Assembly (NCBI RefSeq): GCF_004210375.1
Contig: NC_134832.1
Location: forward strand, 156,795,592-156,859,591
Direction: 5' to 3'
DNA length: 64,000 bases
Source: Tachypleus tridentatus
Taxonomy: Eukaryota; Arthropoda; Merostomata; Xiphosura; Limulidae
The number at the start of each line of letters is the position of its first letter. The stretch's first letter is position 1. The translations under genes were made by a program, and so were the position numbers. Shown here piece by piece: positions 16,959-44,384 of the stretch. A model generated the notes under the pieces. It saw nothing but the letters and a program-made list of their open reading frames with translations, searched no databases and was not told the DNA's origin.

Positions 16959-17022
16959 CTTATTTGCATCTACAGGATTTTCACTCAGATGAACAACACA
17001 TCCAGGGTGAGTTTTCTGAGAT
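16959..17022 (-). CDS. tomosyn exon 6
   Basis: Preceded by the acceptor TTTTTTAG and ended by AAG|GTAACA. With the AT carried over from exon 5, it encodes 21 full codons including KTHPGCVVHLSENP, the conserved tomosyn segment linking two propeller strands after the NKAI motif. It ends in phase 0. The 64-nt length fits exactly (1 + 63). The next exon of the family, starting with an LxIGxExG-like strand, was not found in the window. Confidence 0.9.
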
Positions 17023-17671
17023 CTAAAAAACAAATAACATAACATCAGGTCATCTGTAGGCAAAAATATTTTAAACTTTCTAAAGCAAAATGTTTTTGTA
17101 TTAAATGTGTGCATCAAAGAAACATAAAATGAGCACAAAATTAAGGTAATTTAATAATTTTTAGCCATCATAGCAGCTCATAGAATGGCTCTCAGTTCTT
17201 TTATTTCCAAATACAAAAACTGTTTAGTTCAATGACCATTTCTGGGTAAATTTAAGAATGAATTACATCTGCAGCAAGTTAACATTCTCTTTTGTTTGAA
17301 TTATTTATGACCTGATATCTTTCTTATCTGAAATTGAAAGAATAAAAATAGTATTTTTTCCAGATCCAAACTGCAGTTAAAATAACCAAGTTAGAAATAG
17401 TAATATAATCAAATTCTAATTCAGCTACAAATTACAAATTTGTGGAAAGTACACAGAAAAAGTAAACTATTTTACAGTTTCCGAAACATTTCTTACTAAC
17501 TAAAGATGTAAAATGAATTATGCACCACAGATATGAACAGAAAAAAACAAATATTTCAAATTCAAGACTTGAACATGAGGTTTACAGTTAAAAATGTAAC
17601 TTTAAACTTTTTTGCCTTCTGACATTTTTGCAAAAAAAACAGTGAAATAACAAACAAGTATCTAGTCATTC
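17023..17671. other. intron 5, AT-rich part
   Basis: No coding or named repeat recognised between the exon 6 acceptor and the PLE dyad. Confidence 0.5.
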
Positions 17672-17752
17672 CTGATGACGAGAAACCCACTTGAAGTAAA
17701 ATATATCTCAGGGTGGCTGGTATTGGTATTAACACTTTCACTAGTAGAGCAG

Positions 17753-17792
17753 AGAACAACTATTCGACCTTCTTAAGTCATCTTCAGGTTAA
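17753..17792 (-). ncRNA. degraded hammerhead-like motif
   Basis: Minus strand: AAC, CTGAAGA, T, GACT...GGTC, then GAATAG where intact copies have GAAACG. The core adenosines after stem II are altered, so this copy should be inactive. It supports the conserved position of the motif in the PLE terminus. Confidence 0.35.
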
Positions 17793-18029
17793 CAAAGAGA
17801 GAGTTTGCAAATGGCCATTGCTGGGCAAAGTGTGTAAACTGATATAGAATTGTAGGGGGCGTTGCAATTGGATGTTAGGTTATTAATCAGTACAGGTATA
17901 AAGGTGTTTCTTCATACTGGTTTAATTTTGGTTTTAGTTGTTGTATAAGTTGGGCTTATTTGATTTTGCATTTGTTTCTATTTGTTTCTCTACTTAGTGT
18001 CTGGGTGTTTTCTGTGGTTATGTTGTGTT

Positions 18030-18248
18030 TATTTGATTTGCAGTGTTCAAAAATGTGTGGTGTTTTTTTGTGTTCTTTGATTCTGGTTTCCATTTTCTGG
18101 CTGTTTCTCCAATATAGAAGTCAGGGCAGTTATTGCATTGCATTTTATAAATAATGTTGGTTTTATGTTTCTCAGTGTAGTTTTGTACCTGGTTTTTGAA
18201 TAAATTTGTTAGCTTTTTCAACCATGTTAACTCTATACACCCCAACAC
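18030..18248 (-). pseudogene. PLE GIY-YIG endonuclease fragment (left half)
   Basis: Encodes IIYKMQCNNCPDFYIGETAR followed by KxxxxxKNTKK. This is the C-terminal endonuclease of PLEs: the YKxxCxxC segment with two cysteines, then YIGET(x)R holding part of the active site. The usual next element (R..EH) is changed to PESKN, and the N-terminal reverse transcriptase is absent. In autonomous PLEs this domain nicks target DNA for priming. Confidence 0.8.
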
Positions 18249-18269
18249 AAATTCACCTGTGAACAGGAA

Positions 18270-18940
18270 AAAAAAAACTAGTCAAATTGCATTTCTCAAT
18301 CTCAAAACCACAAGAACTGATACACAATTCAAAACAGAAATACTGTATAGATATTCCCTGGGTCTCAGCACATGAAACAAAACAAAAAACTCAACATATT
18401 AAGAAACCAAGAAAACACAGCCACAAAACTATGTTCACCCGATAAAATTAACAATGAAATCAACAAAATAAAACAACTCTTCATCAATATCAACAAATTT
18501 CCACCAAAACCCATTGAAAGAATTATACACACACACCCAGATCAACTACAAAAAAAATAAAAGATAAAAAATACCAAGACACGACAAACTACAAAACCTT
18601 ATACTGCTGCATAGCATATGTTCTAGACATAAGTGAAAAAATAACAAACATTTGGAAAAAACTTAACAAAACACAACATTCCAGTAAACACCAAATTTAT
18701 TTTACAATCAGGTACAAAACTAAAGTCCATGCTATGTAAAACTTACACTGACAAACACAATTTATAAAATACACTACCACAATTGCCATGACTTCTTTTT
18801 TGGAGAAAGGAGCAGAAAAATTGACACCATATTCAAAGAACCCAAAAAAATCACCTTCACACATTTTTGAACACTGCAAGTCAAATAACCACAACATAAC
18901 CACAGAAAACACCCAGATATCTACTAAGGAAACAAATACA
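18270..18940 (+). pseudogene. PLE RT C-terminus and GIY-YIG fragment (right half)
   Basis: Plus-strand coding with several frame changes. 18280-18560 reads like the region after the RT palm (TTRTDTQFKTEIYRYS-like, then QKLNILRNQENTATKLCSP, then LFININKFPPK). 18600-18720 holds YVLDISEKITNIWKKLN. 18735-18900 holds the endonuclease (IYKIHYHNCHDFYIGERSRK) after correcting one frameshift. The order RT, linker, CxxC and YIG is as in PLEs. Nothing upstream of the RT C-terminus is present; the left boundary is the junction with the inverted half. Confidence 0.75.
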
Positions 18941-19220
18941 AATAAATGAAAGATCAAAGAAAACCTACTCATAACAATTAAAATTAAACCAATATCATGG
19001 AACACCTTTATACCTATAGTAATTAATAACCTAACATCAAACTGCAACGCCCCCTACAATCCCATACCTGTTTTCACTCTTGTCCCTAAAACAAGTTGCA
19101 AACTCTCTCTTTGTTAACCAGAAGATGACATGAGAAGAATGAAACACTGTTTTCTGATTTATCACTAAAAGTGTTATTACCCATGCCAGCCATCCTGAGA
19201 TATATAAGAATCTAGTCACA

Positions 19221-19843
19221 TTAGTTTTATATCTAAACAGGCAAAGAAAAAAAGGATAGTAAATTTTATTGTGGTAGTACAATGTGTGGAAGGAGTTACA
19301 AAAATATTAAAATTTTATCCTGTAACAAGAACCCTTTAGAGAAATAAAGAATGTAACATAAAACTGACATTCCTTATTTCTGAAGGAGAACACTGGAAAA
19401 CAATAGTTTTACAATAACAATAATTTTGTGTTATTACAATGTTTAAATAAATTTTAAAGGAATGTAACACTGTATATAGCACAAAGGCAGAAAAAAAAAC
19501 CAGGATTATAAAACCTTTATATCTGTATTTCAAGAATATGAGAAAATAGATACATATATAAGAACATTAAATTTTGTAAGTTCTTTCCATACAATTTTAG
19601 CCTAATGGTTAATTTAAGAGACAAACACCCATAAGTTGCTACATAACATTCATGTCTTTACAACATATAAAGATCAATTCTAACCCAGTAATTAAATTAT
19701 TACTTGCCAAACATTACTATCTTTAGAAACTTACTTTTGAAGTGCCTCAAATCCTTAAAAATACTTGAAGTCTAACCAATCTGCCAACAATAATAGCAAG
19801 GTAATGCAATTAAATAATCATCCACAAGTCACTGAAAACTTAC
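19221..19843. other. intron 5, AT-rich part
   Basis: Between the PLE dyad and exon 5. No feature recognised. Confidence 0.5.
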
Positions 19844-19978
19844 ATTTTGATGGCTTTATTCCAATGTATGACATATCCAGAAAGAACAAACGATTCAACA
19901 TTTAAGGTATACACATTTCCTCGTTCTGTACCGATGTACAACCATTTACTTTGAAATGGTAAATGACAGTATGTAATT
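19844..19978 (-). CDS. tomosyn exon 5
   Basis: Acceptor TTTTTGCTAG, donor AAAAT|GTAAGT. With AG from exon 4 it encodes RITYCHLPF then FQSKWLYIGTERGN and SGYVIHWNKAIK. The SKWLYxGTERGN and SGYVI.WNKAI strings are hallmarks that separate tomosyn from the related lethal giant larvae (LLGL) proteins. 135 nt = 1 + 132 + 2, so both split codons close in frame. Its acceptor half has a decayed duplicate just upstream in gene order (20038-20145). Confidence 0.95.
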
Positions 19979-20037
19979 CTAGCAAAAATAAAAACAAAAT
20001 ATTATAAATGGCTTTCTAACATGAAAATAATTTTCTC

Positions 20038-20145
20038 CTTGTTCCGTATCGATACACAATCAATTACTTTCATATGGTAACTGACGGTATGTAATTGTAG
20101 CAACAATAAAAATATTATAAATGGCTTTCTAACATGAAAATAATA
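20038..20145 (-). pseudogene. decayed duplicate of exon 5 acceptor half
   Basis: A tandem copy of 19920-20037 covering about the first 60 nt of exon 5 and about 45-50 nt of upstream intron. The intronic part (ATTATAAATGGCTTTCTAAC) is identical in both copies, while the exon part has many changes. The acceptor AG reads AC here, and an in-frame TGA appears soon after (AGT AAT TGA), so it cannot serve as an exon. Confidence 0.85.
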
Positions 20146-20274
20146 TTTCTCTGAAACAGCTTATTTTATATCAAAATGGCCAAGTATTTGATACAAATTT
20201 TACCAAAGGTTATGTTATGATTAAATTATTTTCACAGAAGAAAAACAACTGAACATTTTTTACACATTGGTAAC

Positions 20275-20375
20275 CTTTCTCTTTGAAACTTGAGTGAGTG
20301 AAGAATTTCTGGTCTTTTCTGTCTCAAGTTCCACAAGTGTAAAGTATCATCAGAACACACACTGATCAAAGCACC
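20275..20375 (-). CDS. tomosyn exon 4
   Basis: Acceptor TTTATTTCCTAG, donor GAAAG|GTTACC (a weak donor after GT). Encodes GALISVCSDD then LHLWNLRQKRPEILHSL and FQRER (last codon split). DDTLHLWNLRQKRP is the second WD-type strand set of tomosyn. 101 nt = 33 codons + 2, matching the phase-2 start of exon 5. Confidence 0.95.
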
Positions 20376-21144
20376 CTAGGAAATAAAGGATTTTTAAAAT
20401 ATTATACTGCTCCTTCTTTCAGCACAAGCCTCACTTGCAACAGTAACAACACATATTTTATATTTTGATTTAAACTAAATCCCCTGACAACTCTGAGTTT
20501 AACCTTACTCTTTACTGTATGTCTTTCAGCACCAATAATTTCAAGCCTAACCCTCAAAGCTCTCTTGATTAGCCAAAAAACTCAGTAACTCATGATACAA
20601 CAGAAGGTTTACCCTAAACAGAAATTTCTGAGAACCAACAAACTCTGATTTCGCTCTCGCATTTATATCATATAAAACTAAAGGAAAATTAAACAAACTA
20701 TGTTTTCCCACTTCATACAGTTCATTTATCATAAGTAAATCACTTAAACATTAAAAGTACTTCCTGTACCAGCAATTTGCAACTGTATATGTAGTTTTGT
20801 TGTTTTCAAAATACAATTTTGATGCTTTTCTTCACAAAGAATATACACATTCATAGAAGTAATAGGTATAATTCTGTACTGCATGTCTCATAATCAGTAA
20901 GTTTCATTGTCACTGAGACATTACAAATGTGTCTGCAAATATTTAAAGTATAATAACAGGAAACATAAAAACAATTATATGTACAACTTCTGTTAAAAGC
21001 AAGTACTCACCAGTACTGAAATAAACTGTTGTGGCAGTGTATAAGTTAAAATTACACAAAATCTAAAACCAACACAACAGATATAAATAATTTTGTCAAT
21101 AGAACATTTGAGAAAAAAGATTTTTTTTCAAAAGTATTATATAC
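20376..21144. other. intron 3
   Basis: AT-rich, 769 bp, no internal feature recognised. A splice-like AG...GTGAGT pair at about 21009-21066 (minus) encloses a short open stretch with no resemblance to tomosyn. Confidence 0.6.
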
Positions 21145-21226
21145 CTCATTGACAAGAAATACAATTTGAATGACTGCCAAGTCAACTAAGTGGTGGACAT
21201 GGCACTCAACTCCTGGTTTTCCAAGT
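21145..21226 (-). CDS. tomosyn exon 3
   Basis: Acceptor CCAATCAG (poor pyrimidine tract), donor GAG|GTATAT. After the split isoleucine from exon 2 it encodes LGKPGVECHVHH and AVIQIVFLVNE, matching the family segment (F/L)GxPGVEC..H......VxQxxFLxNE. 82 nt = 1 + 81, ending in phase 0. HVHHLVDL replaces the family's more usual YCQHDSGA-like stretch. The assignment rests on position, phase and the PGVEC and FLVNE anchors. Confidence 0.9.
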
Positions 21227-21756
21227 CTGATTGGTTAGGATTAAGGATGTGTATAACAATCCAACATCATCTAAATGTAAAACTGAAAATCAAACTTACA
21301 AGATATTTTTCACTTAAAGAGAAAAGTCTGGAAACATTCTGTAGTCTCAGTAGCATTACTGCTGCTATAAAATTTTCACATATAATTTGTAGGATAGTAA
21401 ATACTAAAAAAATCTAGAAATAAATATACAAAATGAATGTAAAAACCTATTTCCATTTTGTAAATAATAATAAAAAAATATCTGATACATACAACATATT
21501 TGGCTACCACAGATGTATATCAAGAAACACTATAGCTTTCTATACATGTATACACGTGCAATAAAGTGTGTATTTTGCAAAATTATATGTCAGAAACTTT
21601 TGTTACAAAACTCTTCACCTAAAACACTATGTAACATACACACAATTCCACAAAAATCAGGAACTTCCACTCCAGAAATCTCTCTTTAAAAACTATCTTC
21701 AATGTATTTAGAAATTATGCTGTTAATTAGCCTTCAAGTATCATTTATAGAAGCAA
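21227..21756. other. intron 2, AT-rich part
   Basis: No gene or named repeat recognised. Confidence 0.5.
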
Positions 21757-22022
21757 TAACTTGAAGATATCACTAATCTATGTGAAAAGAATATTTTGTT
21801 ATACATCAGAGAGTAACTTGGATATGCCAGTGACCCACAACAAAAGGATATTTGTCATATATCAAGGAATAACCTGAACACATCACTGAACAACATCAAA
21901 TGGATTTTTCTCCTATACATCAAGGTATAACTTGGAGATATCACTGGCCCATGTGAAAAGGATATTTCTGCCATATATCAAGATATAACTTGGACATGCC
22001 AGTGACCCATGTATCAACCAGC
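21757..22022. repeat. 57-bp degenerate tandem repeat, ~4.5 copies
   Basis: Copies of a ~57-bp unit containing TAACTTGGA(T/C)AT(G/A)CCAGTGACCCA-like, AAAGGATATTT and CATATATCAAGG segments. Copies have diverged by 10-25% by eye. Intronic. Confidence 0.8.
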
Positions 22023-23360
22023 CCACAGTAGGAGGAGAGCTCTCCACCATTCACCTCACACCCAGGAAACAGAAGGGAAGAAATACTTCCATTTTTAGAA
22101 TCCAAGCCATCATGACCAACACATGTACCCTATGGGAACTGGCTTATGAATGACAGTAGGAAGGTAAACATGCAACATAAACAATTAACTCCAGTCCATA
22201 ATCATATGGCACTGGGAATGTATCATCCAGTCAGCAGTAAGAGGAGAGTCACAGTCCAGATATGAGGATTTATTCTGACTGGTCTAGACCCAGTCATCTA
22301 TAAACCAGCATCCAAGTGTTGGTAGAAAGAATGGTTCTTAATGAAAGAGGTGAACTTCATATAGAAATGTGGAAGGAAAAAAACAATCCACCCTACATAA
22401 TATCTGAAATCCTACAACAGATCTGCTGTAAGACAATAGTTACACCACATACACAGGCAGAACACCTTTGTCCTACTCTCCATTAAACATAACTGGGCAC
22501 AATATGGTCCACAGCAGCTGGAAGAAGCTGATAAATGGCATCGACTCCCATATTTCAATAAAAAAAAGGGGGGGCAGAGAATGCACTGGAAAGATTAGAG
22601 GAACACAGAGGAAGAGCAAAACCCTGTTTGGAAAAACAGACCATTCCCAATATACATAATCAAGAAAATGGCAGTGTTCCTTTCTGCTTTACTTGTGTTA
22701 GTCCAGAAGTGTATGGTCTGGGCCAAAAATATTTATGAAACAAAACTCCACAAGAATGAACCTAAGAGCAATCTTGTAGAACAACCCATCTCAGTTGCAA
22801 ACAGTAATGATGTTAGTCTTCATACAGTACAGATTTAAGATACCACTTGTCAGAGTTAGATCCTCCCAAACCAATTTGAGAAAACTCCTGAAAGAGGAAA
22901 ATATGAACAAAAGAAGATACCTAACCATTCATAAATGAACATGAGTGCCAGGAGGTAGATGATCTTCAATCAAAAAAGAAACTACCAGATAATAGAGATT
23001 GTGATACTACTGTATGAAAAGTGGTACACATGCTCGCTTGTATGATTTTCCCCCACAGGAAAATGAAGACAACAATCAAAGACGTTGTGAGGAGACACAG
23101 AAAACTGACAGGAGTCAGCAGACAAAACAAAATGACCGACAAATAATTTTTTTTCTGAATAAACCAAGCAAGATGACAGGAGAAAAGTCACAGGAAACAA
23201 AATAATAATTGTGTATAAACAGTCTGAAACCGAAGAAAGCCTGCAATCACAAAAAAAAATAAGAATCCTGACCAGAGACAAGAGTCAGTATAAGTACAGA
23301 AATATAACTGGGAAACCAATGAACAGTAAAGAGGAGTAAAAGCAACAGTATCTGCATGTG
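22023..23360. repeat. A/G-rich unclassified repeat-like DNA
   Basis: Non-coding, purine-rich DNA similar in texture to 33600-36550 and 48090-50960 (for example AGGAGAGTCACAG, GGGAATGTATCATCC). Short ORFs on either strand are not conserved with any family I know. Intronic. Confidence 0.35.
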
Positions 23361-24556
23361 CAGTAAACCTTATGGGAATGAAGGTACACAGGAGACAGTA
23401 AACATTACAGGAATGAAGGTACACAGAAGACAGTAAACATTACAGGAATGAAGGTACACAGGAGACAGTAAACATCACAGGATGAAGGTATGGCCACAGG
23501 AGACAGTAAACATTACAGGGATGAAGGCACACAGGAGACAGTAAACATTACAGGGATGAAGGTACACAGGAGACAGTAAACATCACAGGGATGAAGGTAC
23601 ACAGGAGACAGTAAACATCACAGGGATGAAGGTACACAGGAGACAGTAAACATCACAGGGATGAAGGTACAGGGGAGACAGTAAACATCACAGGGATGAA
23701 GGTACACAGGAGACAGTAAACATCACAGGGATGAAGGTACACAGGAGACAGTAAACATCACAGGGATGAAGGTACACAGGAGACAGTAAACATCACAGGG
23801 ATGAAGGCACACAGGAGACAGTAAACATCACAGGACAGCAGGTGACAGAGACAGTAAACATCACAGGGATGAAGGTACAGGAGACAGTAAACATCACAGG
23901 AATGAAGGTACAGGAGACAGTAAACATTACAGGAATGAAGAATTTTGCAGTAAACATTACAGGAATGAAGGTACACAGGAGACAGTAAACATTACAGGAA
24001 TGAAGGGTACAGGTAAACATTACAGAATGAAGAAGGTACACAGGAGACAGTAAACATTATAGGAAGGTACACAAAAACAGTAAACATTATAGGAATGAAG
24101 GCACAAAAAACAGTAAACATTATAGGAATGAAGGTACACAAAAACAGTAAACATTATAGGAATGAAGGTACACAAAAAACAGTAAACATTATAGGAATGA
24201 AGGCACAAAGGAAACAGTAAACATTATGGGAATGAAGGTACACAGGAGACAGTAAACATTATAGGAATGAAGGTACACAGGAGACAGTAAACATTATGGG
24301 AATGAAGGTACACAGGAGACAGAAAACATTATGGGAATGAAGGTACACAGGAGACAGAAAACATTATGGGAATGAAGGCACACAGAGACAGGTTATGGGA
24401 ATGAAGGTACACAGGAGACAGTAAACATTATGGGAATGAAGGTACACAGGAGACAGTAAACATTATAGGAATGAAGGTACACAGGAGACAGTAAACATTA
24501 TGGGAATGAAGGTACACAGGAGACAGTAAACATTATAGGAATGAAGGTACACAGGA
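23361..24556. repeat. 35-bp minisatellite, ~33 copies
   Basis: Tandem 35-bp unit GGGATGAAGGTACACAGGAG then ACAGTAAACATCACA. Subtypes are spatially clustered: GGAATG...ATTACA on the left, GGGATG...ATCACA in the middle (23600-23850), GGAATG...ATTATA on the right, with deletions near 24005-24100. Open minus-strand frames (repeats of CNVYC or SYNVYC) are a by-product. It lies in tomosyn intron 2. Same period as the left-end satellite but unrelated sequence. Confidence 0.97.
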
Positions 24557-25102
24557 GAGGTGTGAATGAAAGGTTAAAATAGGAAAACTATGCCTGTGAA
24601 AAGTGCACAGAAGTGTCAGGGTTAGAACCCAAAAAGATATTGGTGGGTGACAAGTAAACAATATGTATGCTAATGTGTGACACTCAGCCACAAACAGAGG
24701 ATGCAGCATCCAGAACCTCAAACACCCTACAGCCACTCCAATGTCAAGTGAAGAGGAAAGGAACAAAAAGACCAGGACATACCTTTCTAATCTACACTAA
24801 ACTTTTCACATTCAATGTAAAGTGAGAACATGACTGAAGACTTCTGTGGACTTTAACTGCCTTAGAAGTTCTGGACGATTTTTTGAACAACTTGATAAGT
24901 AATCCAATTTGTAAATAAACAGTTATATTTCACAATATAAAAGCATTTAAAAGCTTTGCAAGTTGACCACGAGATTTACCTCAGAGAAACAATTGTGCCT
25001 ATTCTGAATCTGAAATTTAGTGTAGAAGGAGCTACCAATAAAACTGTTGGATGAAAAAAAAACTGCTATACTTGAAACAAGGTTTAAAATTCAAATAACC
25101 TG
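24557..25102. other. intron 2, no gene seen
   Basis: No supported feature between the minisatellite and the SINE. Confidence 0.5.
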
Positions 25103-25376
25103 GGCCCAGCATGGCCAAGCGTGTTAAGTCATTTGACTCATAATCCGAGGGTCACGGGTTCGAATCCCGGTCTCACCAAACATGCTCGCCCTCCCAGCCG
25201 TGGGGGTGTTATAATGTGATGGTCAATTCCACTATTTGTTGGTAAAAGAGTAGCCCAAGAGTTGGCAGTGGGTGGTGATGACTAGCTGCCTTCCCTCTAG
25301 TCTTACACTGCTAAATTAGGGACGGCTAGTGCAGATATCCTTCAAGTAGCCTTGTGCAATATTCAAAAACAAAACA
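25103..25376 (+). mobile_element. tRNA-derived SINE (type 1)
   Basis: Starts GGCCCAGCATGGCCAAGCG (A-box-like TGGCCAAGCGTG), then a B-box GGTTCGAATCC, then a conserved body (CTCGCCCTCCCAGCCGTGGG, GTTGGTAAAAGAGTAGCCCA, GGTGATGACTAGCTGCC, AAATTAGGGACGGCTAG) and an A-rich tail. The anticodon-loop region CTCATAATC resembles elongator tRNA-Met. SINEs of this kind are transcribed by RNA polymerase III and moved by LINE enzymes. Other copies here: 52181, 59590, 60920, 61685 and a truncated one at 45463. Confidence 0.93.
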
Positions 25377-25993
25377 TCAAATGACCTTTAGTTGTTTAAA
25401 AATATCTTGTCAGTTTATGACAATAAAAATCCCTGAACCCATGCATGAAAAGCAAAATAGACAAAATGTTAGCAAAGAAATGTAAAAATTAACATAAAAA
25501 AATTGAATTTTACTGACTATTAGAGAAAGCTGTGAAATGAAAAATATGTTACATTTCTTTTTTGGACAAACATAGTTGTGCTTAGGAATTTTAAATGCAA
25601 CTCAAGTTGGTCAATTGCCATCAATTCTAAACTATTATGCTATCATCAAAACCAGTGTTCCCTTGTCAAAGAACAAGATTTGGACATTAAAAAATCATGG
25701 ATTTCCATCTTCAATATACAAGTAGGCTCACCAAAAAGAATTTCTCTCAATCACATCACATATAAACTTATATACTTACAATCTTCATATGGAATGTAAA
25801 CAGTTTGTAAAATAGAACACAAAGTTAAAATAGTGAATTAAATCATAAGAGACCTATCCATTATTGTTTAGAGGAAAAAAAAACTGAAAGCTGTATAGTT
25901 TAAGAATAATTTGTTATTCACTCAATATACAGTGTTATACTGCAAGAACTAGTTGGCTTCATAATATTCTTAAACAGTAACACAGAAGGATAC
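25377..25993. other. intron 2, AT-rich part
   Basis: No gene or named repeat recognised between the SINE and exon 2. Confidence 0.5.
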
Positions 25994-26091
25994 ATTTTTA
26001 ATGATCCAGTTCTTGTTCCAATAGCTAATATCCTCTGAATTGGATCAAAAGCTACAGCTGTTGGTAGGAATGGAAACCCATGTCGAACAGT
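25994..26091 (-). CDS. tomosyn exon 2
   Basis: Acceptor TTTTTTTGTAG, donor AAAAT|GTATCC. Encodes TVRHGFPFLPTAVAFDP then IQRILAIGTRTGSLK and a split isoleucine. This is the first propeller strand of the tomosyn/LLGL family (HGFP.xPxAxAFDPxxxxLAxGTxxGxxK). 98 nt = 32 codons + 2. Confidence 0.95.
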
Positions 26092-26795
26092 CTACAAAAA
26101 AATAACGAAAGAAATGAACAGAAAACAAAACTGAGATTTGAGCAAGTGTACTTAATAACGTAACTATTTTTTAACAAATATTTTGTTAAATGATCAAAAA
26201 TTCACATCCATACTGGTTGGTTGATTTAGTGTTTTATAGCACAAAACAGCTAGTCTAACTGTACCAAACATCCAATAAAAAGTTAAAAGTAAATTTAGTA
26301 AAATTTATAAAAGGAAATTAAGGTAAAACAAAACAAAGTTTGAAAAACATAAATAGCATAAAACTAATGTTTACATCTAGTCTACAATGTTAAGAGAAAA
26401 ACTACAGTAATTCAAGTTGTAAAGGACTTTCTGTAGCATAACTGTAATTACATAACTCACCAGGAATACTAACAGGTAAGTACAAAAACCACCATCAGTC
26501 ACCTGAAGTTGGCTTTTCCAGTCCTGGTTCTGAGTTATTTGACGTTATGGCCATTTTCAAAAAGGAAAGTAATAAAAAAGGTTTTTAAAGACTTGTAGCA
26601 AAATTATAACAATAACTCACCAGGATAACTAACAGGAAGTTCAAACAGCAACATTAGTCACCTGAACTTGGCCTTTCCACTCCTAGTTACGGTTACTTAA
26701 TGCTATGGCCAGTTTCTAATTTCAAAGAGAACTAGATGAACTGTTATTTTTAAAAGGAACCTCATTAAAAAAGTGTAATGTATAAATTAAAAAAC

Positions 26796-29215: not shown

Positions 29216-29234
29216 GTGGACAATCAGCTCGAAA

Positions 29235-32883: not shown

Positions 32884-32895
32884 CACATCTATACT

Positions 32896-35800
32896 AAAAA
32901 AACGGGCTGACGACACAATGTGAATGAAAGTTTACATTTGTTTCATACTGAAAATGTATTTCTGATAGTTACTTCTCTCAGACTATCAATTTTATTTTTG
33001 TTCCCTAATCGCAACTGAAAAAATAAAATTCATGCTTATCACATCACTCTCAATGTCCCACAAATTTTGCACTGCTACTGAACATGTATATAGCACGTTA
33101 CTAATTCTCCACCAATAGTACTGAGCTACATATATTGGTACAACTAACTCCCTCTTGTGTTTCATATGCACTCCTCACTTTTGAGAACTGGTAGAATTTA
33201 TATGAACAGCAGCAGCAGAATAAATAAATGGCAGGAAGTGTGTGAAAGAGGTAAGTACCTATGAGAAATACATTTTCAGTGTAAATAAAATGTTAACTTC
33301 CAATATTTCCATTCACACTAAGCTAGAATCCCATACTACAAAGGTGAAAGAGCTAGTGTAAATGCTTAACACTGAAATAAAGCAGAATGTAATGGCCCTG
33401 AACGAGTGGTTATGCTCTGAAATAAAACCAAAGCACACATGAAGCACCACACTACTTCTGGAACAGGCATGCTCTCCACCTTAGAAGAAAGAAGTGAACT
33501 TGATACTGCATAAGAAAGAGGATGGGAAAAAGTAAAATTCATTCTGAGAAGTACCATCTGTAATAAAAAAAACAACTGTATATACGCAGTTATGTCTAAT
33601 CAGACAGATGAGGTTTTGCAACCCGTCTCCAGCATCAGGAGGTTGAGGGTTACACAAGACAAAAGTGAAAGAGTAGCATAAACATTATGGCTATCGTGTG
33701 TATGTTGTGTTACATATACACATGAACCCCAACCATGAGCATACATACATCAAGCAACCGGGATTATGAAAAGGAATTAAGCCTACAGCCAAAACAAAAA
33801 AAACAACCACCATAGGAACAAGAAACACATCAAACAAAACTCTACATTATGGAGTTATGGCATTGCCTCATCTCAACTGTAAGAATAAAACAATATCTAT
33901 ATTAATAGTAAAAATCTTAACTCATCCAACCATAGACACAGGGAAGACACATCCTGCATTTAGAATTAGGAGGAAGATATGAAACATCTGCTCAACCATA
34001 TGGGAAGATGTATACATGTCTGGTATCACAAGCAAAACCCCATACAGGCTGGACCTATTCTGACCAACAATTGTTCACATGAGAACAAACATCCAGGGGA
34101 AATAGGATGAAGAATGAGGAAACCAGCTTTGTTTCTTCTCACTGAGAGGATAATTGTATATATGTATGGCAAGTCTACAATGTACTCAGGAGAAAGCCCC
34201 TATATTCCAACACCCCAGTAATTAGGAAGTGGTAAGAACTCCCTAGTTCCACTTGGAGAAAAGAGGTAGGGAGAATAAATGTCTCAGGAAGTCTAGAAGA
34301 ACATTATACTGGAGAAGTGCAGTGGATGACCACTATTCTCTATTCTGAAAAGTATACTGTCACCAGTTTATGCAATTAAGGGATCACAAATCCCCTTCTG
34401 CTTTACTCAAGAAAATCCATGAGCAATGGTCTACTAGTGAGTGAAACATACGGCTACAGAGAAACAAACATATACACCACTGAGCATGCCACTAGTGATC
34501 TTGCAGAATACTACACCTCTCCAGTAAACATTATAGCAATATCTGTAAACAGTGCAGGTTTAAAACAAAACATTCCACCAGACAACCACAGAGTGATATT
34601 ACATAAGCAGTGTTAAAAAAAAAACATTAATGAAATGATGTGAAAAGACTTACTCCAGCCAAAGGCAAGTGGACATATGCAGAAGTGCTATAAGAGAGAG
34701 ATGATGTTCATTCACAGAAGATACAGCCAGTCTGTGCAGGTTATGAGTGATAAAGATATTGGTAGCAGTCCACATTCTGGTCTAAACGATCTCCTCTGAA
34801 AGACAGTGAAAGCAAGCAGCCAGAGACATGGTTATATGGCAAATTTGATGAGAAGAAGAAATATGGAGATGATGGCCTTCTATGAATAAGTCTGGATAAG
34901 CCAGTTGAATGAGTTGACAGTTAAGATGACAAGGAATATATCACTGGAAACAGAAGGATTTCAGAAAATAAAAATTCAGAAAATTGAACTCGAAAAGGAG
35001 GCAGTACATGCCAATTAGCACCATAAGGAATGAACCAGACAAAGAAGCTAACCAAGATCAGAATGAGAACACAGTTGGGAGATGGAAAGCAAGGAAATGG
35101 GTCTGAAGTTCAAACCACTTTCATGGGCAGTCTTGGAGAGGAAGAAGTCATGATACAGAATGACATAAGAGAAAAAGTAGAGGGTTCTGATAACATTAAT
35201 GGCATAAATATACAATTAAAGGTGTTCACACTAATGAGAGAAAATGAAATAGTTCTTGAGGGAGATGTTATATGGAATACATGAACAAAGATTGAAAGGA
35301 ATAATGTGAAAAGACAAGACCGAGATCCCAATCAGGCAAATAAAGAAACAAGAAGGATGAAAGACAAGAAAAGTGTGTAAAAGAGGGAAACTTGAAAAAC
35401 AGGTGTTCAAACGACATGGTCAAAGTGGACAATCCTTTCTCAAACAACCAGATGAGAAAAGTGGAAAAAAATTAGTTACAGAAGAATGAAAAGAATAGAA
35501 ACCACATTGAAGGTGGAAAGTAAATGGACATGGAAGAAGGTCTTATGAATGGAGAAAGGATAAGTGCAACATATGGAGTTAGACATAAAGCTGAGGCAAG
35601 GAACTTGACAAAATCTACATGTGATTAAAGAGGATGGTAATGTCTTGATGAATGACGTCCAATTGAGGTTGACAGAGTAGAGACCATGACTAAAGTAAGA
35701 GTAGGGAATGTTACAGAAGTAAAAGTTGGAGCAGTAGGAACCACGGTTGCACCAGACAATATGGAGTCACCATAAAGACTAAATATGAGTTATTTTGAAT

Positions 35801-36552
35801 TAGGAATAGAACTCTGGAGAGGAGCCCAATAGAGATTTAGACCCTTCCAATCTTGACTGAATACATACATTCTCAGAGATAGTGGTATGGAATGGGAAAC
35901 TAAAAGAAAGCGGTGTTCCAAAGGGTCGAGAAGGGATACATAAGGTATCTTCAGCTAGGAATACACATACCAAAGACCTGTGGATTGAAGAACTAAGCCA
36001 CGGGGTGAATATTGTTCAAATGAGATAATCAATACGTAAACAAATTCAGTGTGCCAGGAACATGGCAATCTAAGACCACAAGTAAATATTAAAAGAACAC
36101 ATCTAAATATAGATTCTAGCAAGTCACTTGGTATATTGAATGCAGCACTGCTTACAATTGGATGTTTGTGATGTCAAAATACCAAGTCTATAGTTTCATA
36201 TGAATTAGCATCTCAAATTACTAATATTGACAAGCTAGAATATAAAATAAGAACTTTGTATCTTTTCATTTTACTATGATATGGCTTATGCACTGAATCA
36301 AATAGTAGCCCTGTCCATACTATGATATGGACAAATAGTAGCCCTGTCCACCTCTTTCCCTTCTTGGAAACAGTCCCTCATATACACTTGCTTCAATATA
36401 TGACATTTGAATAACCAATCAACAGCTTGGAATATCCTCAGAGTGGTTTACTTAGCCAGAGGGAGCTACATGCATCCAAAGGTTGTATTGTATTCCTATT
36501 TCTGGAGGGTTATCTCATGATGATTTCCATGCAATGGAACCACAATAATTGT
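32896..36552. repeat. unclassified purine-rich repeat block
   Basis: 3.7 kb between LINE copies B and C. 33225-33500 shares ordered blocks with 11280-11665. 33600-36500 is A/G-rich and resembles 48090-50960 in texture. ORFs up to 84 codons are unlike any family I know. No termini, TSD or domains were found. Probably one or more old elements of an unknown class. Confidence 0.35.
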
Positions 36553-36563
36553 GGATAAGTGGG
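36553..36563. repeat. target-site duplication, left, LINE copy C
   Basis: GGATAAGTGGG, identical to 42873-42883. Adjacent to the element's 3' end. Confidence 0.93.
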
Positions 36564-37478
36564 TTGATTGATTGATTTAGTGTTTTATGGCACAAAGCAG
36601 CGAGGCTATCTGCGCCAGACATTCGGTAAAAATGTAAAAAAAAAAAAAAAAATGTAGTAATAGACATAAATGGGAATGAAGGTAAAACAAAAAAGTATAA
36701 AACCAATGTTGACACCTAGTCTACAATGTTAAGATAGAAGGCAGAGTACAAGAAGTTGTAAGGTATTCACTCTAGCAAAAAGGTAATGATCATAACCCGC
36801 CAGGAAGACTAACAGGTAAGTTCAAGAGCTACCGTCAATCACCTGAAGTTGGCCTTTCCAGTCCTGGTTCTGGGTTATGTGTCATAGCAGCTATTATCAA
36901 AATGTAAAGAATAAAAGTTTTAAAAGACACTCCGCAAAATCGTAATAATGAGTAGCCAAATGTCCAGTAAAAAGATAAAAGTCAAGTAAATGGAGTAAAA
37001 TTTGTAAAAGTAATTGAAGATAAAAGCAAAACGGCAATTAAAACAGAAAATGGCGTAAAAAACCAATGTTGACATCCAGTCAACAAAGTTGTAAAGAATT
37101 ACCTGTAGCAGAATGGTAATGATCATAACCCACCAGGAAGACTAACAGGTAAGTATAAAAACCACCGCCAGTCACCTGAAGTTGGTCTTTCCAGTCCTGG
37201 TTCCGGGTTATGAGTCAATATGGCCAGTACTAAAAAGTTAAGTAGTAAAAGTGTGAAATGATATGCAGCAAAAGTATAATAACAACTCGCCAGGACGACT
37301 AACAAGTAGTTCAAACGGATAGTTCAAACAGTAGCCTTAATCACCTGAAGTTGGCCTTTCCAGTCCTGGTGTCGGTTATTTAATGTTCTGGCCATTGTCC
37401 GTCAAATTGAAGGAGAGAGATTAAAACTGTAAAAAAGGAACCACAATTAAAAAGGTGTAATGAATAAATATGCAACAC
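36564..37478 (-). repeat. LINE copy C 3'UTR with internal repeats
   Basis: Contains three related ~85-bp blocks (about 36785-36880, 37120-37215 and 37275-37370), each with CCAGGA(A/C)GACTAACA(G/A)GTAAGT-like, CACCTGAAGTTGG and CTTTCCAGTCCTGG strings. Copies A and B carry one and two or three of these. The terminal block before the tetranucleotide tail (GCCATAAAACACTAAATCAA on the minus strand) is conserved in all copies and is likely the RT recognition end. Confidence 0.85.
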
Positions 37479-40400
37479 TTAAATGAGATTAAAAAGATTA
37501 ATGGCCATTAAAGAATTAAAAACATTATCAAGGTGGACAGAGTCACCATCACCAATAACTCTGTCCAATGTTACAGACTGACCCTGGGAAAAAATATGTT
37601 TAAAATATTGCCGTCGTTGAGAATTGTAACGATGGCAAGAAAGTAAAACGTGGCTGATAGTGATTTGAGTGTTACACAAACTACACATTGGTGCATCAGT
37701 TCCAGATAAAAGAAAATGATGAGTTAAAAAACTGTGACCAATGCATAGCCTAGTGAGAACAACTTCCTCCTTCCAAACTTTACGGAAGCTAGATGGCCAA
37801 AGTCCAATTTTGGGTTTGATTTGAAAAAGTTTGTTGTCACGTTGCTCACTCCAAGTGAACTGCCAGCTGGCACGGAACCGAGCCTTGAAGACAACACCAT
37901 AGTCCATGTACGGAATAGGCATAGGAGTGATGGTGCTGAAGCAGACATATTTGCTGCCATGTCTGCAAGCTAGCCTCCCTGAATACCCACATGGCCTGGT
38001 ATCCAGAAAAACTGGATTGAAGTAGCTGCTAATGAGAAATGGGCCGGTCGGTTTCGAATATCTGGGAGAATAGGATGTGAGCTAACGTGTAGCGATTCCA
38101 AGGCAAGTATAGAACTAAGCGAATCAGTATAAATAGTGCAGTTGGAGTACTGCTCAGCTGCAATATGATCCAGGGCAAGAGATATGGCATACAGTTCAGC
38201 AGTAAACACAGAAGCTGTAGAAGGGATTCTGCATGCAACTACTGACCCATAGCAAACCATAGCAGAGCCCACTGAATTACCTGATTTGGAACCATCTGTA
38301 TAAATGGGAACTGAATGATTGTTTGAAAGGTATTCATTGAATAAAAGACGTTACTTCCAATCTAGAGTATCTGCCTTTTTAGGTGACTGAAAGAAAGGTC
38401 ACATTTGGGGGCTGTAATAAGCCATGGTGGGATGGGCCAACCTGTGGAATCTGCAATGTTATCCAAAGACAGACCCAATTCATCCAATTGCGCCCGGGTG
38501 CGAAGGCCAAACGGAGCAATGACAGATCGTCTGTTCTGAAAAAGTACTGCCCACCGAGGAAGGAAAACACATTTCCAGGTGGGATGCTTTGGTAAGGAAT
38601 GAAGTTTCAAGTATATTGTAAAGATAGTTGCAAACGGTGAAGGTGTAGAGAAGGTTCATGAGATTCAATGTATATACTATGAACTGGAGAGGTACGGAAA
38701 GCCCCAGTGCAGAGTCAAGTCCTTGGTGATGAATGGGGTCCAGCATCTTTAAGGTCGAGGTCTGGCAGAGCCATAAACCATTGAACCATAATCGAAGTTT
38801 CGATCTAATAAGAGCACGATATATCTTTAACATTGAACAACGATCTGCCCCCAACTGGTAGAAGAGAGAACACGGAGGATGTTCAGTGCTCTTGTGCATT
38901 TGACCGAAGCTGCTTTAAGTGTGGTATAAAGGTCAGTTTATGATCAAAGATAAGCCCCAAGAACTTGGTCTCCGAGACCACTGGCAGCAAAACTTCACCA
39001 ATATGAAGTTCAGGATCAGGGTGAATACCCCATCGACGGCAAAAGTGCATGCATACAGTTTTGAGAGAGAGAATTAAAGCCGTTCTCCAGAGTCCACTTC
39101 CATTACACAATTGAGGGCGGTTTGTAGTTGCCGCTCAATATATCTCATGTTTGACGACTGACATGATATGTGAAAGTCGTCGACATACAGCCCATTCGCA
39201 ACAGTGAGAGGGAGTTGTTCAGTGATGGCATTTATCTTTATACTGAAGAGTGTAACACTCAATACACAGCCTTGAAGGACTCCAAGTTCCTGTACAAAAG
39301 AACAGGAAAGTGTCGAACCCACACGAACTTGGAATCTCCTGTCCATTAAAATTTTTTAATAAACATGGGTAGATGGCCACGTAACCATATGTATGGAGGT
39401 CTCGCAAAATGCCATACCTCCATGTTGTGTCATAAGCCTTCTCTATGTCAAAGAATATTGAAACAAGATGTTGGCATTTGAGAAAGGCTTTTCTGATTGA
39501 TGTTTCAAGTCAAATTAGGTAGTTCGTGGTGCAATGCTGTCGACGGAACCCACACTGGGTGGGCGAGAGGAGGTTGTTTGATTCGAGGAATCAAACAAGA
39601 CGTGCATTAACCATCCTCTCTAAGGTCTTACAGAAACAGCTCGTCAAAGCAATTGGATGGTAGTGTACAGGAATCTGGGGATCTTTCCCAGGTTTAGAGA
39701 AAGGTAAGATAATAGCCTTGCACAAGACATCAGGAAAAACATTCTCCTGCCAGATCCGGTTAAAAACAATTAGAAGAATATCAAGAGAAGCAGGAGATAG
39801 ATGGTGCAGCATGTCATAATGAATATCATCAGGTCCAACAGACGTACTGGCAGACCGATGAAGGGCCATTTTTAGTTCCACCAGGGTAAAGGGACAATTA
39901 ATTGTCAAAGAAACAGTCAGTTCAAAAGGAAAGAGGTGATCGCTCTGCCCGAGTCTTGATGGCCAGGAAGGTGGAGAAACAAGCAGAAGTGCTAGATACC
40001 CGGCAAAAGCTTTCACCTAGAGTGTTAGCAATGTTCCGAACATCAGTCACCTCCTGACCATCAGAAATTAAGATCGAGAGGGGGATAGAATTGTAGTGTC
40101 CATTAACCTTTCGAATCCTGTCCCATATGATCTTGGAACTGGTGGTAGAGGATATGCTGGTTGTGAACTTAATCAAAGATTCCTTCTGGCTTTGACGTCT
40201 TACCCACCTAGCATGTGCATGGGCCCGTTGGAAAGCAACCCGGTTTGAAAGTGTGGGATATCTACGGAAAGTATCCCAGGACCGCTTTTGAGCCTTCCGT
40301 GCTAAGTGGCAAGCAGGATTCCACCATGGACGAGGATATCGTGAAAAATGTGTCGAGGTTTTAGGAATACACTGAGCAGCTGCATGTGTAATACAGTCAG

Positions 40401-41179
40401 TTACTGCTGCTACACAGTCGTCTATTGATGGCTCATTTACGATGGCAGGATCAAGTTCGGGAGAGCAGTGAAAGTGGACCAGTCTGCCTGATCCAGCTTC
40501 CACCGGGCACGCTGGTAGGTGGCATCGACCACGCCAGTCTCTCTCAAAAGGATCGGAAAATGATCACTGCCTAGTGGATTACTGTCAACCCTCCATGAAA
40601 AATGGGAGAATAATGAAGGGGAGCAAACTGAGAGATCAATAGCGGTAAAGGACTGACTAGGTGCATGAAAGTAAGTGGAAGAACCAGTATTGAAAAGAGA
40701 AAGATTGTGATCAGAGAGCATCCGCTCTACAGATCGGCCCCTCCCATCAATAATAGCACTTCCCAGAGGGGATGATGTCCATTAAAATCCCTAGGATTAG
40801 AAATGGAGATGGCAATTGTTCAACGAGCATCAAGATCTGATTGATCATATGTCTCTCCAGGGGACAGGTACAGAGAACAAACAGTGATGGTATGACCCAA
40901 GGAAACACGGATGGCAACAGCCTCTAAGGGTGTGTTGAGTGACAAAGACAGGGTGGGCACGTGTTGATCAACCAACAGTGCCACCCCTCCATGTACTCGA
41001 CCATCACACAACCTGTCACTTCTGTACAGAGAAAACTGCCGAATGGAGACAGTATCAGCAGTTTTGAGAAATGTTTCTTGTAAAGAAAGACAAACAGGAT
41101 GGGAGGAAGCAATCAGTGTTTTGACATCATCCAGATTAGAACGTAAACCTCGACAGTTCTATTGTATCAAGGTGGCCAT
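37479..41179 (-). pseudogene. LINE copy C ORF2: endonuclease-RT-RNase H
   Basis: Start ATGGCCACC (41179) lies two bases after the ORF1 stop. Order: APE endonuclease (NCRGLRSNLDDVKTLI; VHGGVALLVDQHVP at about 40990; DSNPLGSDHFPILL at about 40550, with the SDH motif), RT (SVGPDDIHYDMLHHL at about 39860; ILPFSKPGKDPQ; LYVDDFHIS at about 39180, catalytic DD), RNase H (FTAELYAISLALDHI, IYTDSLSSIL, 38270-37980), then CSLCNTQITISHVLLSC near 37680. Stops such as TAG for the Trp in QWNCRG and several frameshifts interrupt it. Expected length about 1230 residues, usual for the group. Confidence 0.92.
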
Positions 41180-41181
41180 TT

Positions 41182-42437
41182 TTAAGAATGGGTAGGTGAA
41201 GTGGCTGGAGAACCCTTCGGTTTACGACCATGTCTTTTGTCTTTACTGTCTTTAGTCGGAGGAGGTCTATCAACCTCCATGGATCCTGCTCTGGGTCGGG
41301 TGGGTAGGTTTTTGTTATTGGAAGGGGAATCCAGTGACTGAGGACGCGAATGAATAATTGTTTTGCCTCTTGTGGTGGGAGAAAAAGATGTATCAGAAGA
41401 AATGCTTGTATCTGAAACTGAAGGACGTGGATCTTGAGGTTTGTTGGAAGGTATGGGAGGAACAGAGATGGGTGTGGAAGTCGATTTATCAACCTTTTTA
41501 ACCACGGAGGTCAAAAGGCTCTTCATTTGTTTTGAAAACGACTCTCTTGGAGGCACAGAGAGATCTGTCTGCACTCCCACTGTAGTTGTGGAATGAAGTG
41601 CAGCAGCATGTCGAGATGGAGATGTGGACAGCAATTTCGAGCCTCAGGATAACTAATGTTATGTGTCGTTTTCAAACGCTGCACCTCTTTTCCTCAACCA
41701 TTTTGGCCAAGAATGAAAGTAAGAGGGGTGAGAACCATTGCAGTTTACGCAATGTGGGTTCATGTCACAGTCATAGGCATCGTGGTCCTTGCCTCCAGAA
41801 CGAGCACATGTAAGGGAACCATGACAAGATGTCTTTGAGTGGCCGAATCTCTGACATTGGAAACATCGAAGAGGGTTTGGTATGTATGGTTGAACCCTGC
41901 AAATGTGATAACCTGTCTTGATGGTGGTAGGTGCACGTGGTGAAGTAAATGTTAAAACGAGGGTATTTGTTGGCAGTGTAACTCCATCTTTGCGAGTGGA
42001 GATGCTCCTCACTGCAGAAACTCCTTGAGTGGAGAAACAAGCGAGAATCTCTGACTCGGGAACGTTCTTCAAATCCCTTTCAACAATAACTCCTCGTGAA
42101 GAATTCAAGGTAGCATGGGGTGTAACCTCAATAGGTATATCCCCAATTGCCTTTGAATTGAAGAGGAGTTCACTGTGTTGGGATGTGGATGTTTCAACCA
42201 ATATGTCACCAGATCGAAGTTTCTTTACTGATTTTGGAGAGCCAGCAAGTCCCTCTAGTCCCTTTTGAATAAAAAAGGGGACATTTGCCCTAAAGGTTTT
42301 CAAAAGAGAATGTAATATAAGAAAATGAGTGGTGCGTGTGTTACTGATGTTGAAGATTGCTGTTCTGAGTATTCAAGACGTGGTCGCTACCCATTGACTG
42401 TTTTTTACAATTTTATTTAAACTTTTAGAGGATCCAT
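41182..42437 (-). pseudogene. LINE copy C ORF1 (Gag-like, three zinc knuckles)
   Basis: About 419 codons with interruptions. 42303-41659 is open: an RNA-binding-type N-terminal half, then CFQCQRFGHSKTSC, CARSGGKDHDAYDC and CVNCNGSHPSYF, i.e. CCHC-type knuckles in tandem (the middle one with a changed spacing). 41634-41182 is a Ser/Thr/Pro-rich basic tail ending in KRHGRKPKGS. A short stretch with several stops (41640-41660) and another near 42310-42430 break the frame. ORF1 proteins coat LINE RNA and act in the ribonucleoprotein. Confidence 0.9.
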
Positions 42438-42872
42438 ATGAAAAGAAAAAATTTGGTACCCGCTGACCCCACCCACCATGGAACCCTACAAGGGGACTTA
42501 CTACAAAGTCACGCAAGGACAATGCAGCAGCATGGGGTTTCGTGAGCACTATACCCAAACACCAGCATCAGGCACAATGTCCACAACACCCATTGAGAAC
42601 TTCCAACACTGGTACTTGGTGGACTCTAGCCCAAGTGGACCAGCCGATTGACCCAAGGGGGCCACCCAAGGCAGCCCATCTACAGGAATTGGGAGGCCAA
42701 AGTGGTGTGTTAGGGTTGGACCCCTCAACCACCAGGATCCTCTCCTCCCCTTCACGGGTCACCACGCACGGCAAACACGTGGGTGGATGTTTAGATCCCA
42801 GAGAAGGTAATCAGATAGAACAGAACCTTCCTGGGAGGTCCCTCACCACGTACAGGAATCCACACTGAGGGG
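42438..42872 (-). other. LINE copy C 5'UTR / internal promoter region
   Basis: Shares most bases with 32459-32883 of copy B, including both ends. Full-length LINEs of this group carry their promoter inside the 5'UTR; no specific motif is claimed here. Confidence 0.7.
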
Positions 42873-42883
42873 GGATAAGTGGG
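42873..42883. repeat. target-site duplication, right, LINE copy C
   Basis: GGATAAGTGGG, identical to 36553-36563, next to the element's 5' end. Confidence 0.93.
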
Positions 42884-43248
42884 AGTGTAAGGCTTGTAGC
42901 ATGTGCAAATACTTTTGTGTTTAGATAGCAGCATTGAGCAAGAATAAATGAATGTGTTTAAAGGTTATATACTGTATCGAATTTAAATTTTCACTATAAC
43001 AGCAAACTTACATAGCCTACAATTCAGGGAAAAATCTTTCACACCTTTTAAAAAAATAAAGTTATTATCTCTTTAACCGCCTACTAAACTACCAAAATGA
43101 AAATTAAAACTTGTATATCCAATTTGTTCTCTCTTTTAACACTGGATAAAACTTATTGGCACTTTTACATTAAAATATTAAGAGCTTAGAAACAGGTAAA
43201 GTCACTACTACACTGAATCAATCTGCCTGAAGATGAACCAAATGACAA
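42884..43248. other. intron 1, no gene seen
   Basis: AT-rich, nothing recognised. Confidence 0.5.
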
Positions 43249-43405
43249 AGTTCATGATGACAAGAAACCCACTTGAAGTAAAAATGTATCTTTAGACTGC
43301 TGGTATGGGTATTAAAACTTTTATTAAAATAAAGCAGAAAATTACTTTATTTTAATAAAAGTTTTCATACTCATACCAGCAGTCTTGAGATACAAATGAG
43401 AAAGC
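43249..43405. mobile_element. PLE-family foldback (hairpin)
   Basis: Outer left end ATGATGACAAGAAACCCACTTG matches the family's terminal consensus across its length (22 bases, quoted in two parts: ATGATGACAAG and AAACCCACTTG). Arms of about 52 nt (43282-43334 and 43345-43397) are nearly perfect inverted repeats around GCAGAAAATTA. The hammerhead-like segment is absent. No coding. Confidence 0.75.
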
Positions 43406-44237
43406 TATATAATTATACAACTCAATCACTTGAAAATTAATTAACAACAGTTCAGAAATAGATACAATTGTCTCTACTATAAAAATAAGAAATTACAGAG
43501 AAAATAAAGAAAGAATAAGAGAAAATACATATTTTCTATGTTCCTTATGTAAGGTAAACTACATTTTTTATTTATTGTTAATTGTAATAACAGTATTTAT
43601 TATATTATCTAGTTTGCTAAACGTTATGACTTTTTGGAATTAATAATAATTATTACAATAAAAAATGTTTTGCAATGTTAATTAAGTATATTTATTTAGA
43701 ACTAACCCAAATTTCCTGAGATGGCTCAATTTTGTGACATATTACTGGGTTTACCAATGAGGATACAGAACTCATGAAACTATGTATTCTAATTTTTTTT
43801 AGGTAGAAATGAAGACAACTATGTTTAATTAATTAGCTAAAGTAGTTACAAAATATAAGCAAATATCTTAATCTAATCCCCAACACAAAACATTTCCATA
43901 TATTTATATCACTGTTTACTGAATGTGTCAATCACAAATTTTCAAAATGCTTAGTCTCACATAAGTAACTTGAACTGTTGAATTACCACATGAAAATTAT
44001 CATTTTACTTACAGTAAGGGTTCCAAACTTAGGTAAATAAAAGAAGCTTTATATAAATTTTGTAAAAGATATTCTGAACCTGAATGCTTAACTGCAAGCA
44101 TGTTTATGGGTTTAATTTTTAAATTAAGATAATTTTAGTATTGTGTTTGTCATTATGTTAAATACTTTATAAAACATTGTAACTTCAATAAATTAATTCT
44201 GTTTTGTTTGATAAATATCACACATCAGTCAACTTAC
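43406..44237. other. intron 1, 5'-most part
   Basis: Strongly AT-rich with no named repeat. It leads directly to the exon 1 donor. Confidence 0.5.
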
Positions 44238-44384
44238 TTTCAAAGCTTGAAAATGTTCTCGTTGTAACGTTTCTTCAATTTCACTTTCATGTTTCACTGA
44301 CTGACTTAGGCCTACAGATGACTTGAGACCTTCTAACATATCCTTGAAAAAGCCACCCGTTCGCTTCATTTCCGTGCGTTGCAT
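44238..44384 (-). CDS. tomosyn exon 1 (start codon)
   Basis: ATG at 44384, preceded by AAC (A at -3) and an in-frame TAG two codons upstream, so it is the first usable start in this frame. Encodes 49 codons: a basic N-terminus (MQRTEMKRTGGFFKDML), SSVGLSQSV, then EIEETLQREHFQALK, which matches the EIxETLxxEHFxxxK segment before the first propeller strand of tomosyn. Donor AAA|GTAAGT in phase 0. A second in-frame Met is codon 6. A 5' non-coding exon further upstream is possible. Confidence 0.9.

What the first reader, a model, noticed from the sequence alone, without database searches (positions are those of the whole stretch)
16959..44384. Tomosyn (STXBP5) N-terminal exons hidden in repeat-rich DNA
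Six exons of 64-147 nt on the minus strand splice in perfect phase to 209 codons with tomosyn hallmarks (EIEETLQREHF, HGFP..PTAVAFDP, LHLWNLRQKRP, SKWLYIGTERGN, SGYVIHWNKAI). Each is too short to stand out as an ORF, so a repeat-focused annotation would miss the only host gene here.
Basis: partly seen in the sequence, partly recalled or inferred. Interest (0 to 1): 0.7.

Follow-up and report, generated by a model that had tools for sequence, protein, structure and literature searches.

The report
Horseshoe crab tomosyn exons, duplicated contig
The six short exons are real and belong to an ordinary regulator of nerve secretion, tomosyn, in a horseshoe crab, but this stretch looks like a redundant second-haplotype piece of a gene whose fuller copy lies about 0.3 Mb away.

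Summary
The family is tomosyn, not LLGL. A C7 gene has the same exon layout (167/207 residues identical, dN 0.10, dS 1.67). The C8 gene carries, on one strand, an LLGL-domain exon and a terminal R-SNARE exon whose best solved match is m-tomosyn (E 1.4e-8). A C9 gene is the Lgl-like one. Coagulogen identity to PDB 1aoc (89/89 residues) points to Tachypleus tridentatus.

Wherever sampled it matches, inverted, a gene copy at C8:156.47-156.53 Mb (1.4-2.4% substitutions around the exons), and in part a third contig that differs mainly by small indels. As drawn, the extra contigs are out of gene order. Unpurged haplotigs, not an extra gene, is the likeliest reading. The rest of the window shows transposon remnants and satellites. 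Ordinary; low interest.

The parts
44238..44384 (-). tomosyn exon 1, 49 codons, starts at ATG with in-frame TAA TAG just upstream
   Evidence: identical in contig C (0 differences in 147), 3 differences in copy A
25994..26091 (-). tomosyn exon 2 (98 nt)
   Evidence: 1 difference from copy A; in contig C it carries three 1-nt deletions
21145..21226 (-). tomosyn exon 3 (82 nt)
   Evidence: 0 differences from copy A
20275..20375 (-). tomosyn exon 4 (101 nt), LHLWNLRQKRP
   Evidence: 4 differences from copy A, all synonymous
19844..19978 (-). tomosyn exon 5 (135 nt), SKWLYIGTERGN and SGYVIHWNKAI
   Evidence: 0 differences from copy A
16959..17022 (-). tomosyn exon 6 (64 nt), last exon found on this contig
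   Evidence: 0 differences from copy A
10602..64000 (.). part of a 60.6-kb contig (C8:156,806,193-156,866,828) bounded by 500-N gaps; inverted match of C8:156.47-156.53 Mb (copy A) wherever sampled; 25357-64000 also matched directly by contig C
10102..10601 (.). 500-N scaffold gap; the match to copy A stops at 10607
1..10101 (.). 35-bp satellite array on the other side of the gap; no such array reported in L046, the 10 kb of copy A that matches window 15444-10607 and then goes on

Best explanation
These are the first six coding exons found of one horseshoe-crab tomosyn (STXBP5-type) gene, encoding the start of the N-terminal WD40 propeller. The protein should act as a soluble decoy R-SNARE: its C-terminal SNARE motif occupies syntaxin/SNAP-25 in place of synaptobrevin, and the propeller scaffold positions it at release sites (inferred from work on other animals). 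In this window the gene is cut off after exon 6 by the end of a 60.6-kb contig. That contig most likely is a piece of the second haplotype left in the assembly beside, and inverted relative to, the fuller copy at C8:156.495-156.625 Mb; it is not an additional gene. Shown: exons, frame, family, redundancy, coincidence of match ends with gaps, scrambled contig order. Inferred: allelic origin, function.
For: Exons and frame. Copy A in gene order on one strand: exons 1-6 at 156,495,394-156,523,743, LLGL domain 156,548,912, R-SNARE 156,624,760. SNARE exon best PDB hit m-tomosyn 1urq, its frame stopping 7 residues after the match. Paralogue on C7 with the same layout. Window contig against copy A: 8 coding differences in 627 nt, 5 synonymous and 3 not; substitutions outnumber indel events in 8 of 8 aligned rows. 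Contig C against the window: indel events outnumber substitutions in 6 of 6 rows, narrowly in one (87 against 82), as noisy contig sequence would show. The match to copy A ends within 5 bases of the left gap and reaches the last base before the right gap. The contig after the right gap matches copy A at 156,602,100-156,605,134, as expected if it is one inverted contig running back to the LLGL locus. Extra contigs run C, D, B along the minus strand, so no second copy could be read in order as drawn.
Against: Divergence of A and B (1.36-2.40% in five rows near the exons, 3.16-4.20% in three others) is above published mean heterozygosity (0.65% T. tridentatus; 0.8% C. rotundicauda), as a young real duplication might show. 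Three versions exist, one more than two haplotypes need. In two rows of C against the window substitutions reach 1.15% and 1.26%. The right end of the contig lies in a tandem repeat that matches in many registers, so that end is less sharp, and the right end of contig D lies in LINE sequence. Part of copy A (156,531,943-156,535,243) has no second copy found. No reads were available, so depth and linkage are untested.
Confidence: 0.76

Rival explanations
1. A real, recent inverted segmental duplication: C8 carries a second, partial tomosyn locus about 0.3 Mb from the first, and the assembly merely broke in it.
For: A-B divergence above mean published heterozygosity; coding sequence intact in both over exons 1-6; three assembled versions exist.
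Against: Match ends coincide with gap edges; contig order C, D, B is incompatible with a working gene; B and C overlap nearly identically; the R-SNARE exon is listed once in this region, in A; part of the gene has no second copy found.
Confidence: 0.18
2. The exons belong to an Lgl (LLGL1/2-type) gene rather than tomosyn.
For: Best PDB hits of the 209-residue protein are LLGL2 and LLGL1.
Against: The rows shown hold no tomosyn propeller; the C9 gene scores far better with LLGL1; the C8 gene has an R-SNARE exon closest to m-tomosyn.
Confidence: 0.02
3. A decayed pseudogene fragment of tomosyn.
For: Truncated after exon 6 in the window; three non-synonymous differences from copy A, one (L58) at a site where both A and the C7 paralogue have Q.
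Against: No stop, frameshift or lost splice site in any of six exons; the truncation coincides with the contig end.
Confidence: 0.04

Closest known systems
Tomosyn / syntaxin-binding protein 5 (STXBP5, STXBP5L; Drosophila tomosyn; C. elegans tom-1)
   Same: N-terminal WD40 start; in copy A also an LLGL-type domain and a C-terminal R-SNARE motif with no membrane anchor after it; two paralogous genes in the genome, as vertebrates have (vertebrate pair recalled)
   Different: Only the first 209 residues are in the window; the horseshoe-crab pair presumably comes from its own genome duplications (inferred, no tree built); Drosophila has a single gene (PMC8612732, section heading seen)
Lethal giant larvae, LLGL1/LLGL2
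   Same: Shared propeller ancestry; best PDB match of the N-terminal part
   Different: Poor match of the LLGL-domain exon (E 0.35 against 1.9e-13 for the C9 gene) and presence of a tomosyn-like SNARE exon in the C8 gene

Membership tests
Tomosyn (STXBP5) | N-terminal WD40 propeller related to Lgl | tested here: met
   E 3.4e-22 to LLGL2 over residues 37-173; Pfam gives WD40/beta-propeller models, none over its curated cut-off
Tomosyn (STXBP5) | LLGL domain (PF08366) downstream on the same strand | tested here: met
   Copy A 156,548,912 (+), over cut-off; none listed on the window's own contig
Tomosyn (STXBP5) | C-terminal R-SNARE motif closest to tomosyn | tested here: met
   Copy A exon 156,624,760 (+), PF00957 over cut-off, best PDB hit 1urq M-TOMOSYN; not in the window; the stretch between LLGL and SNARE exons of A was mostly not read
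Tomosyn (STXBP5) | No membrane anchor after the SNARE motif | tested here: met
   In copy A the frame stops 7 residues after the matched motif
Tomosyn (STXBP5) | Binds syntaxin and SNAP-25, inhibits secretion | not testable with these tools
   inferred from family
Lethal giant larvae (LLGL1/2) | LLGL-domain sequence close to LLGL1/2 | tested here: not met
   E 0.35 against 1.9e-13 for the C9 gene
Lethal giant larvae (LLGL1/2) | No tomosyn-type R-SNARE at the C terminus (recalled feature) | tested here: not met
   R-SNARE exon present in copy A

The most novel reading that the evidence does not exclude
C8 carries a genuine, young inverted duplication of the 5' half of tomosyn in this animal, giving a second promoter and N-terminal scaffold without the SNARE motif: a natural scaffold-only form that could compete with full tomosyn for localisation.
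Probability: 0.08. Interest if true: 0.4.

Novelty: already known. Interest (0 to 1): 0.12.

Why it matters
As biology it is a conserved gene where one expects it. The useful lesson is about the assembly: an annotation of this chromosome-scale sequence may count tomosyn two or three times, with truncated models, and a false inverted duplication could be mistaken for gene family growth in a lineage already famous for genome duplication. The two tomosyn genes (C7 and C8), beside Lgl-like matches on C9 and C12, are a modest parallel to vertebrate STXBP5/STXBP5L.

Tried and rejected
Considered and rejected: an LLGL gene; chance exons; a continuous gene through the left gap into the satellite (copy A goes on there without it). 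Led nowhere: PF08596 (Lgl_C) found nothing, with no positive control; the satellite search found nothing, and simple repeats are skipped by that search; Rfam at gathering thresholds and ARAGORN were empty; mapping contig C's upstream with L037 returned only repeat-like matches elsewhere in the 23 rows listed. The paper search for tomosyn with horseshoe crab listed one paper, on imaging of fossils by its title and the start of its abstract. No structure was predicted, since a small part of a two-propeller protein would add little. The species is judged from coagulogen identity to 1aoc and the 2.14-2.15 Gb k-mer size in PMC6390705; that 1aoc is from T. tridentatus is recalled. Published T. tridentatus assemblies in the papers seen are smaller than this one (1.94 Gb; 1.7 Gb), so the record itself was not identified. 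The novelty rating rests on the family being known; no gene annotation of this genome was seen.
Full report
What is there. Lengths, ends, phase and translation were recomputed: 147, 98, 82, 101, 135 and 64 nt, AG at each acceptor, GT at each donor, 627 nt, 209 codons, no stop. Stops TAA and TAG stand in frame immediately before the ATG.

Where the window lies. It is C8:156,795,592-156,859,591 of a 2.167-Gb assembly in 205 contigs. The clotting family Coagulin gives 19 matches, and two joined exon pieces are identical over 89 of 89 residues to the coagulogen of PDB 1aoc. That this family marks horseshoe crabs and that 1aoc is from Tachypleus tridentatus are recalled. The k-mer genome size of that species, 2.14-2.15 Gb, fits (PMC6390705, passages seen), though the assemblies in the papers seen are smaller (1.94 Gb; 1.7 Gb, PMC7815833, abstract).

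Which family. The N-terminal part finds LLGL2 and LLGL1 best in the PDB (E 3.4e-22 and 1.4e-20), but the 60 rows shown of 73 name no tomosyn propeller, so this cannot discriminate. Inside the genome the 209 residues match three C8 places for exon 1, two for each of exons 2 to 6, one set on C7, and only weakly C9 and C12 (E 0.3 or worse). The C7 gene has the same six-exon layout, with exon 1 two codons shorter; 167 of 207 aligned residues are identical, dN 0.103, dS 1.67: an old paralogue under strong purifying selection. PF08366 (LLGL) matches lie once on C7, twice on C8, once on C9 and twice on C12. The C9 exon finds LLGL1 at 1.9e-13, the C8 one at 0.35; the C12 exon reads much like the C9 one but was not searched. 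A synaptobrevin-type exon lies on C8 at 156,624,760 (+), over the cut-off, and on C7 at 194,973,237 (+), under it (19.4 bits). The C8 exon's best solved match is the m-tomosyn SNARE motif, E 1.4e-8, and its frame ends 7 residues later without a membrane anchor. So C8 holds a tomosyn gene and C7 very probably another, while C9, and by likeness C12, are Lgl-like. No tree was built.

Three versions of one locus. Copy A runs on the + strand with exons 1 to 6 at 156,495,394-156,523,743, then the LLGL exon and the SNARE exon. The window's version (B) is its inverted copy. The pieces of A that were read over this range (156,460,001-480,000; 493,894-497,043; 512,520-515,627; 517,424-521,925; 522,181-535,243) match in the same order, with breaks in the repeat-rich flank; the rest was not read. 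Substitutions are 1.36-2.40% in the five rows around the exons (two of them overlap), 3.16% in the next 4.9 kb and 3.49-4.20% in two rows of the far 5' flank; in all 8 rows they outnumber indel events (which lists alignments of at least 1,500 bases). Coding differences are 8 in 627 nt, 5 synonymous and 3 not (codons 34, 47, 58). Contig C matches window 25357-64000 directly, apart from 326 bases that were not read. It shows 0.12-0.25% substitutions in four of six rows and 1.15% and 1.26% in the other two; indel events, often in homopolymers, outnumber substitutions in 6 of 6 rows, narrowly in the last (87 against 82; one of the six rows overlaps another, and the last 1.8 kb, 96.7% identical, was not broken down). 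Its exon 1 equals the window's; its exon 2 has three 1-nt deletions, which may be why one search did not list it.

Contig edges. B spans 156,806,193-156,866,828, 60.6 kb, with 500-N gaps at both ends (window 10102-10601; L068 7238-7737). Its match to A stops at window 10607, five bases from the gap, while A goes on without the satellite. On the other side the match to both A and C reaches the last base before the gap, though in a tandem repeat that matches in many registers. C begins at 156,933,139 right after another 500-N gap, and its match to the window starts within three bases of it. Between B and C lies contig D. Its right end, read in L045, matches A between 156,544,645 and 156,547,411 at 90-94% in two pieces, in LINE-like sequence. 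Its left end matches A between 156,602,100 and 156,605,134 at 97-100% in the best pieces, as expected if D is one inverted contig of about 65 kb. D's middle was not read, apart from the LLGL locus L004 (98.0% to A), so further gaps there are possible. Along the minus strand the order is C (exons 1, 2), D (LLGL and onward), B (exons 1-6), then satellite. No second gene can be read through in that order. A stretch of A between the parts matched by B and D (156,531,943-156,535,243) has no other match found in the assembly.

Reading. The simplest account is leftover second-haplotype contigs placed beside their partner by scaffolding. Against it: A-B divergence is about two to six times the published mean heterozygosity of 0.65% (PMC6390705; 0.8% in the mangrove species, PMC7210998; passages seen only), and three versions are one too many unless B and C are redundant assemblies of one haplotype, which their mostly indel-type differences suggest. 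A real young duplication is kept at 0.18.

Function. Tomosyn is a decoy SNARE. In Drosophila its SNARE domain is needed to suppress release and its WD40 scaffold for correct placement (PMC8612732, abstract, section headings and passages); a heading of the same paper says that Drosophila encodes a single gene. Applying this to the horseshoe crab is inference.

Rest of the window. All 33 stop-to-stop frames of at least 110 aa right of the gap were scanned with Pfam (E up to 0.001, up to 0.1 in the others). Three exceed a cut-off: RNase_H at 27129-27593 and 37973-38350, Exo_endo_phos_2 at 40440-40781. RNase_H at 54803-55516, Exo_endo_phos at 40823-41158 and DUF4371 at 30698-31048 stay below theirs; the remaining hits are weaker and look like chance. 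No RNA family at gathering threshold and no tRNA was found.

Noticed in passing
window 1-10101: At least 10.1 kb of a 35-bp satellite (about 287 copies) with strong G-over-C skew of about 0.46, ending at a 500-N gap; another array of 35-bp period with a different unit lies at 23361-24558.
   Followed up: partly
window 12.9-14.5, 26.2-29.2, 36.6-42.8, 54.4-57.2 kb: Several diverged copies of a LINE-like retroelement (RNase H and endonuclease frames), two of them inside intron 1 and one beyond exon 6 of tomosyn.
   Followed up: partly
window 30403-32049 (+): Possible transposase remnant: DUF4371 match below cut-off at 30698-31048, neighbouring frames without match.
   Followed up: partly
window 20036-20151 (-), just upstream of exon 5; copy A C8:156,520,051-156,520,277: Decayed partial tandem copy of the exon 5 start and its intron edge; copy A seems to hold one such unit more than the window.
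   Followed up: partly
C8:156,806,193 to about 156,980,000: Redundant contigs B, D and C, inverted relative to copy A; likely false duplication of about 0.17 Mb in a chromosome-scale assembly (D's middle unread).
   Followed up: yes
C7:194,899,806-194,973,341 (+): Second tomosyn gene, presumably kept from genome duplication.
   Followed up: partly
L068:1-268: Stretch upstream of tomosyn with an inverted relative in L038, reading like a Tc1/mariner transposase remnant (impression from the letters, not tested).
   Followed up: no
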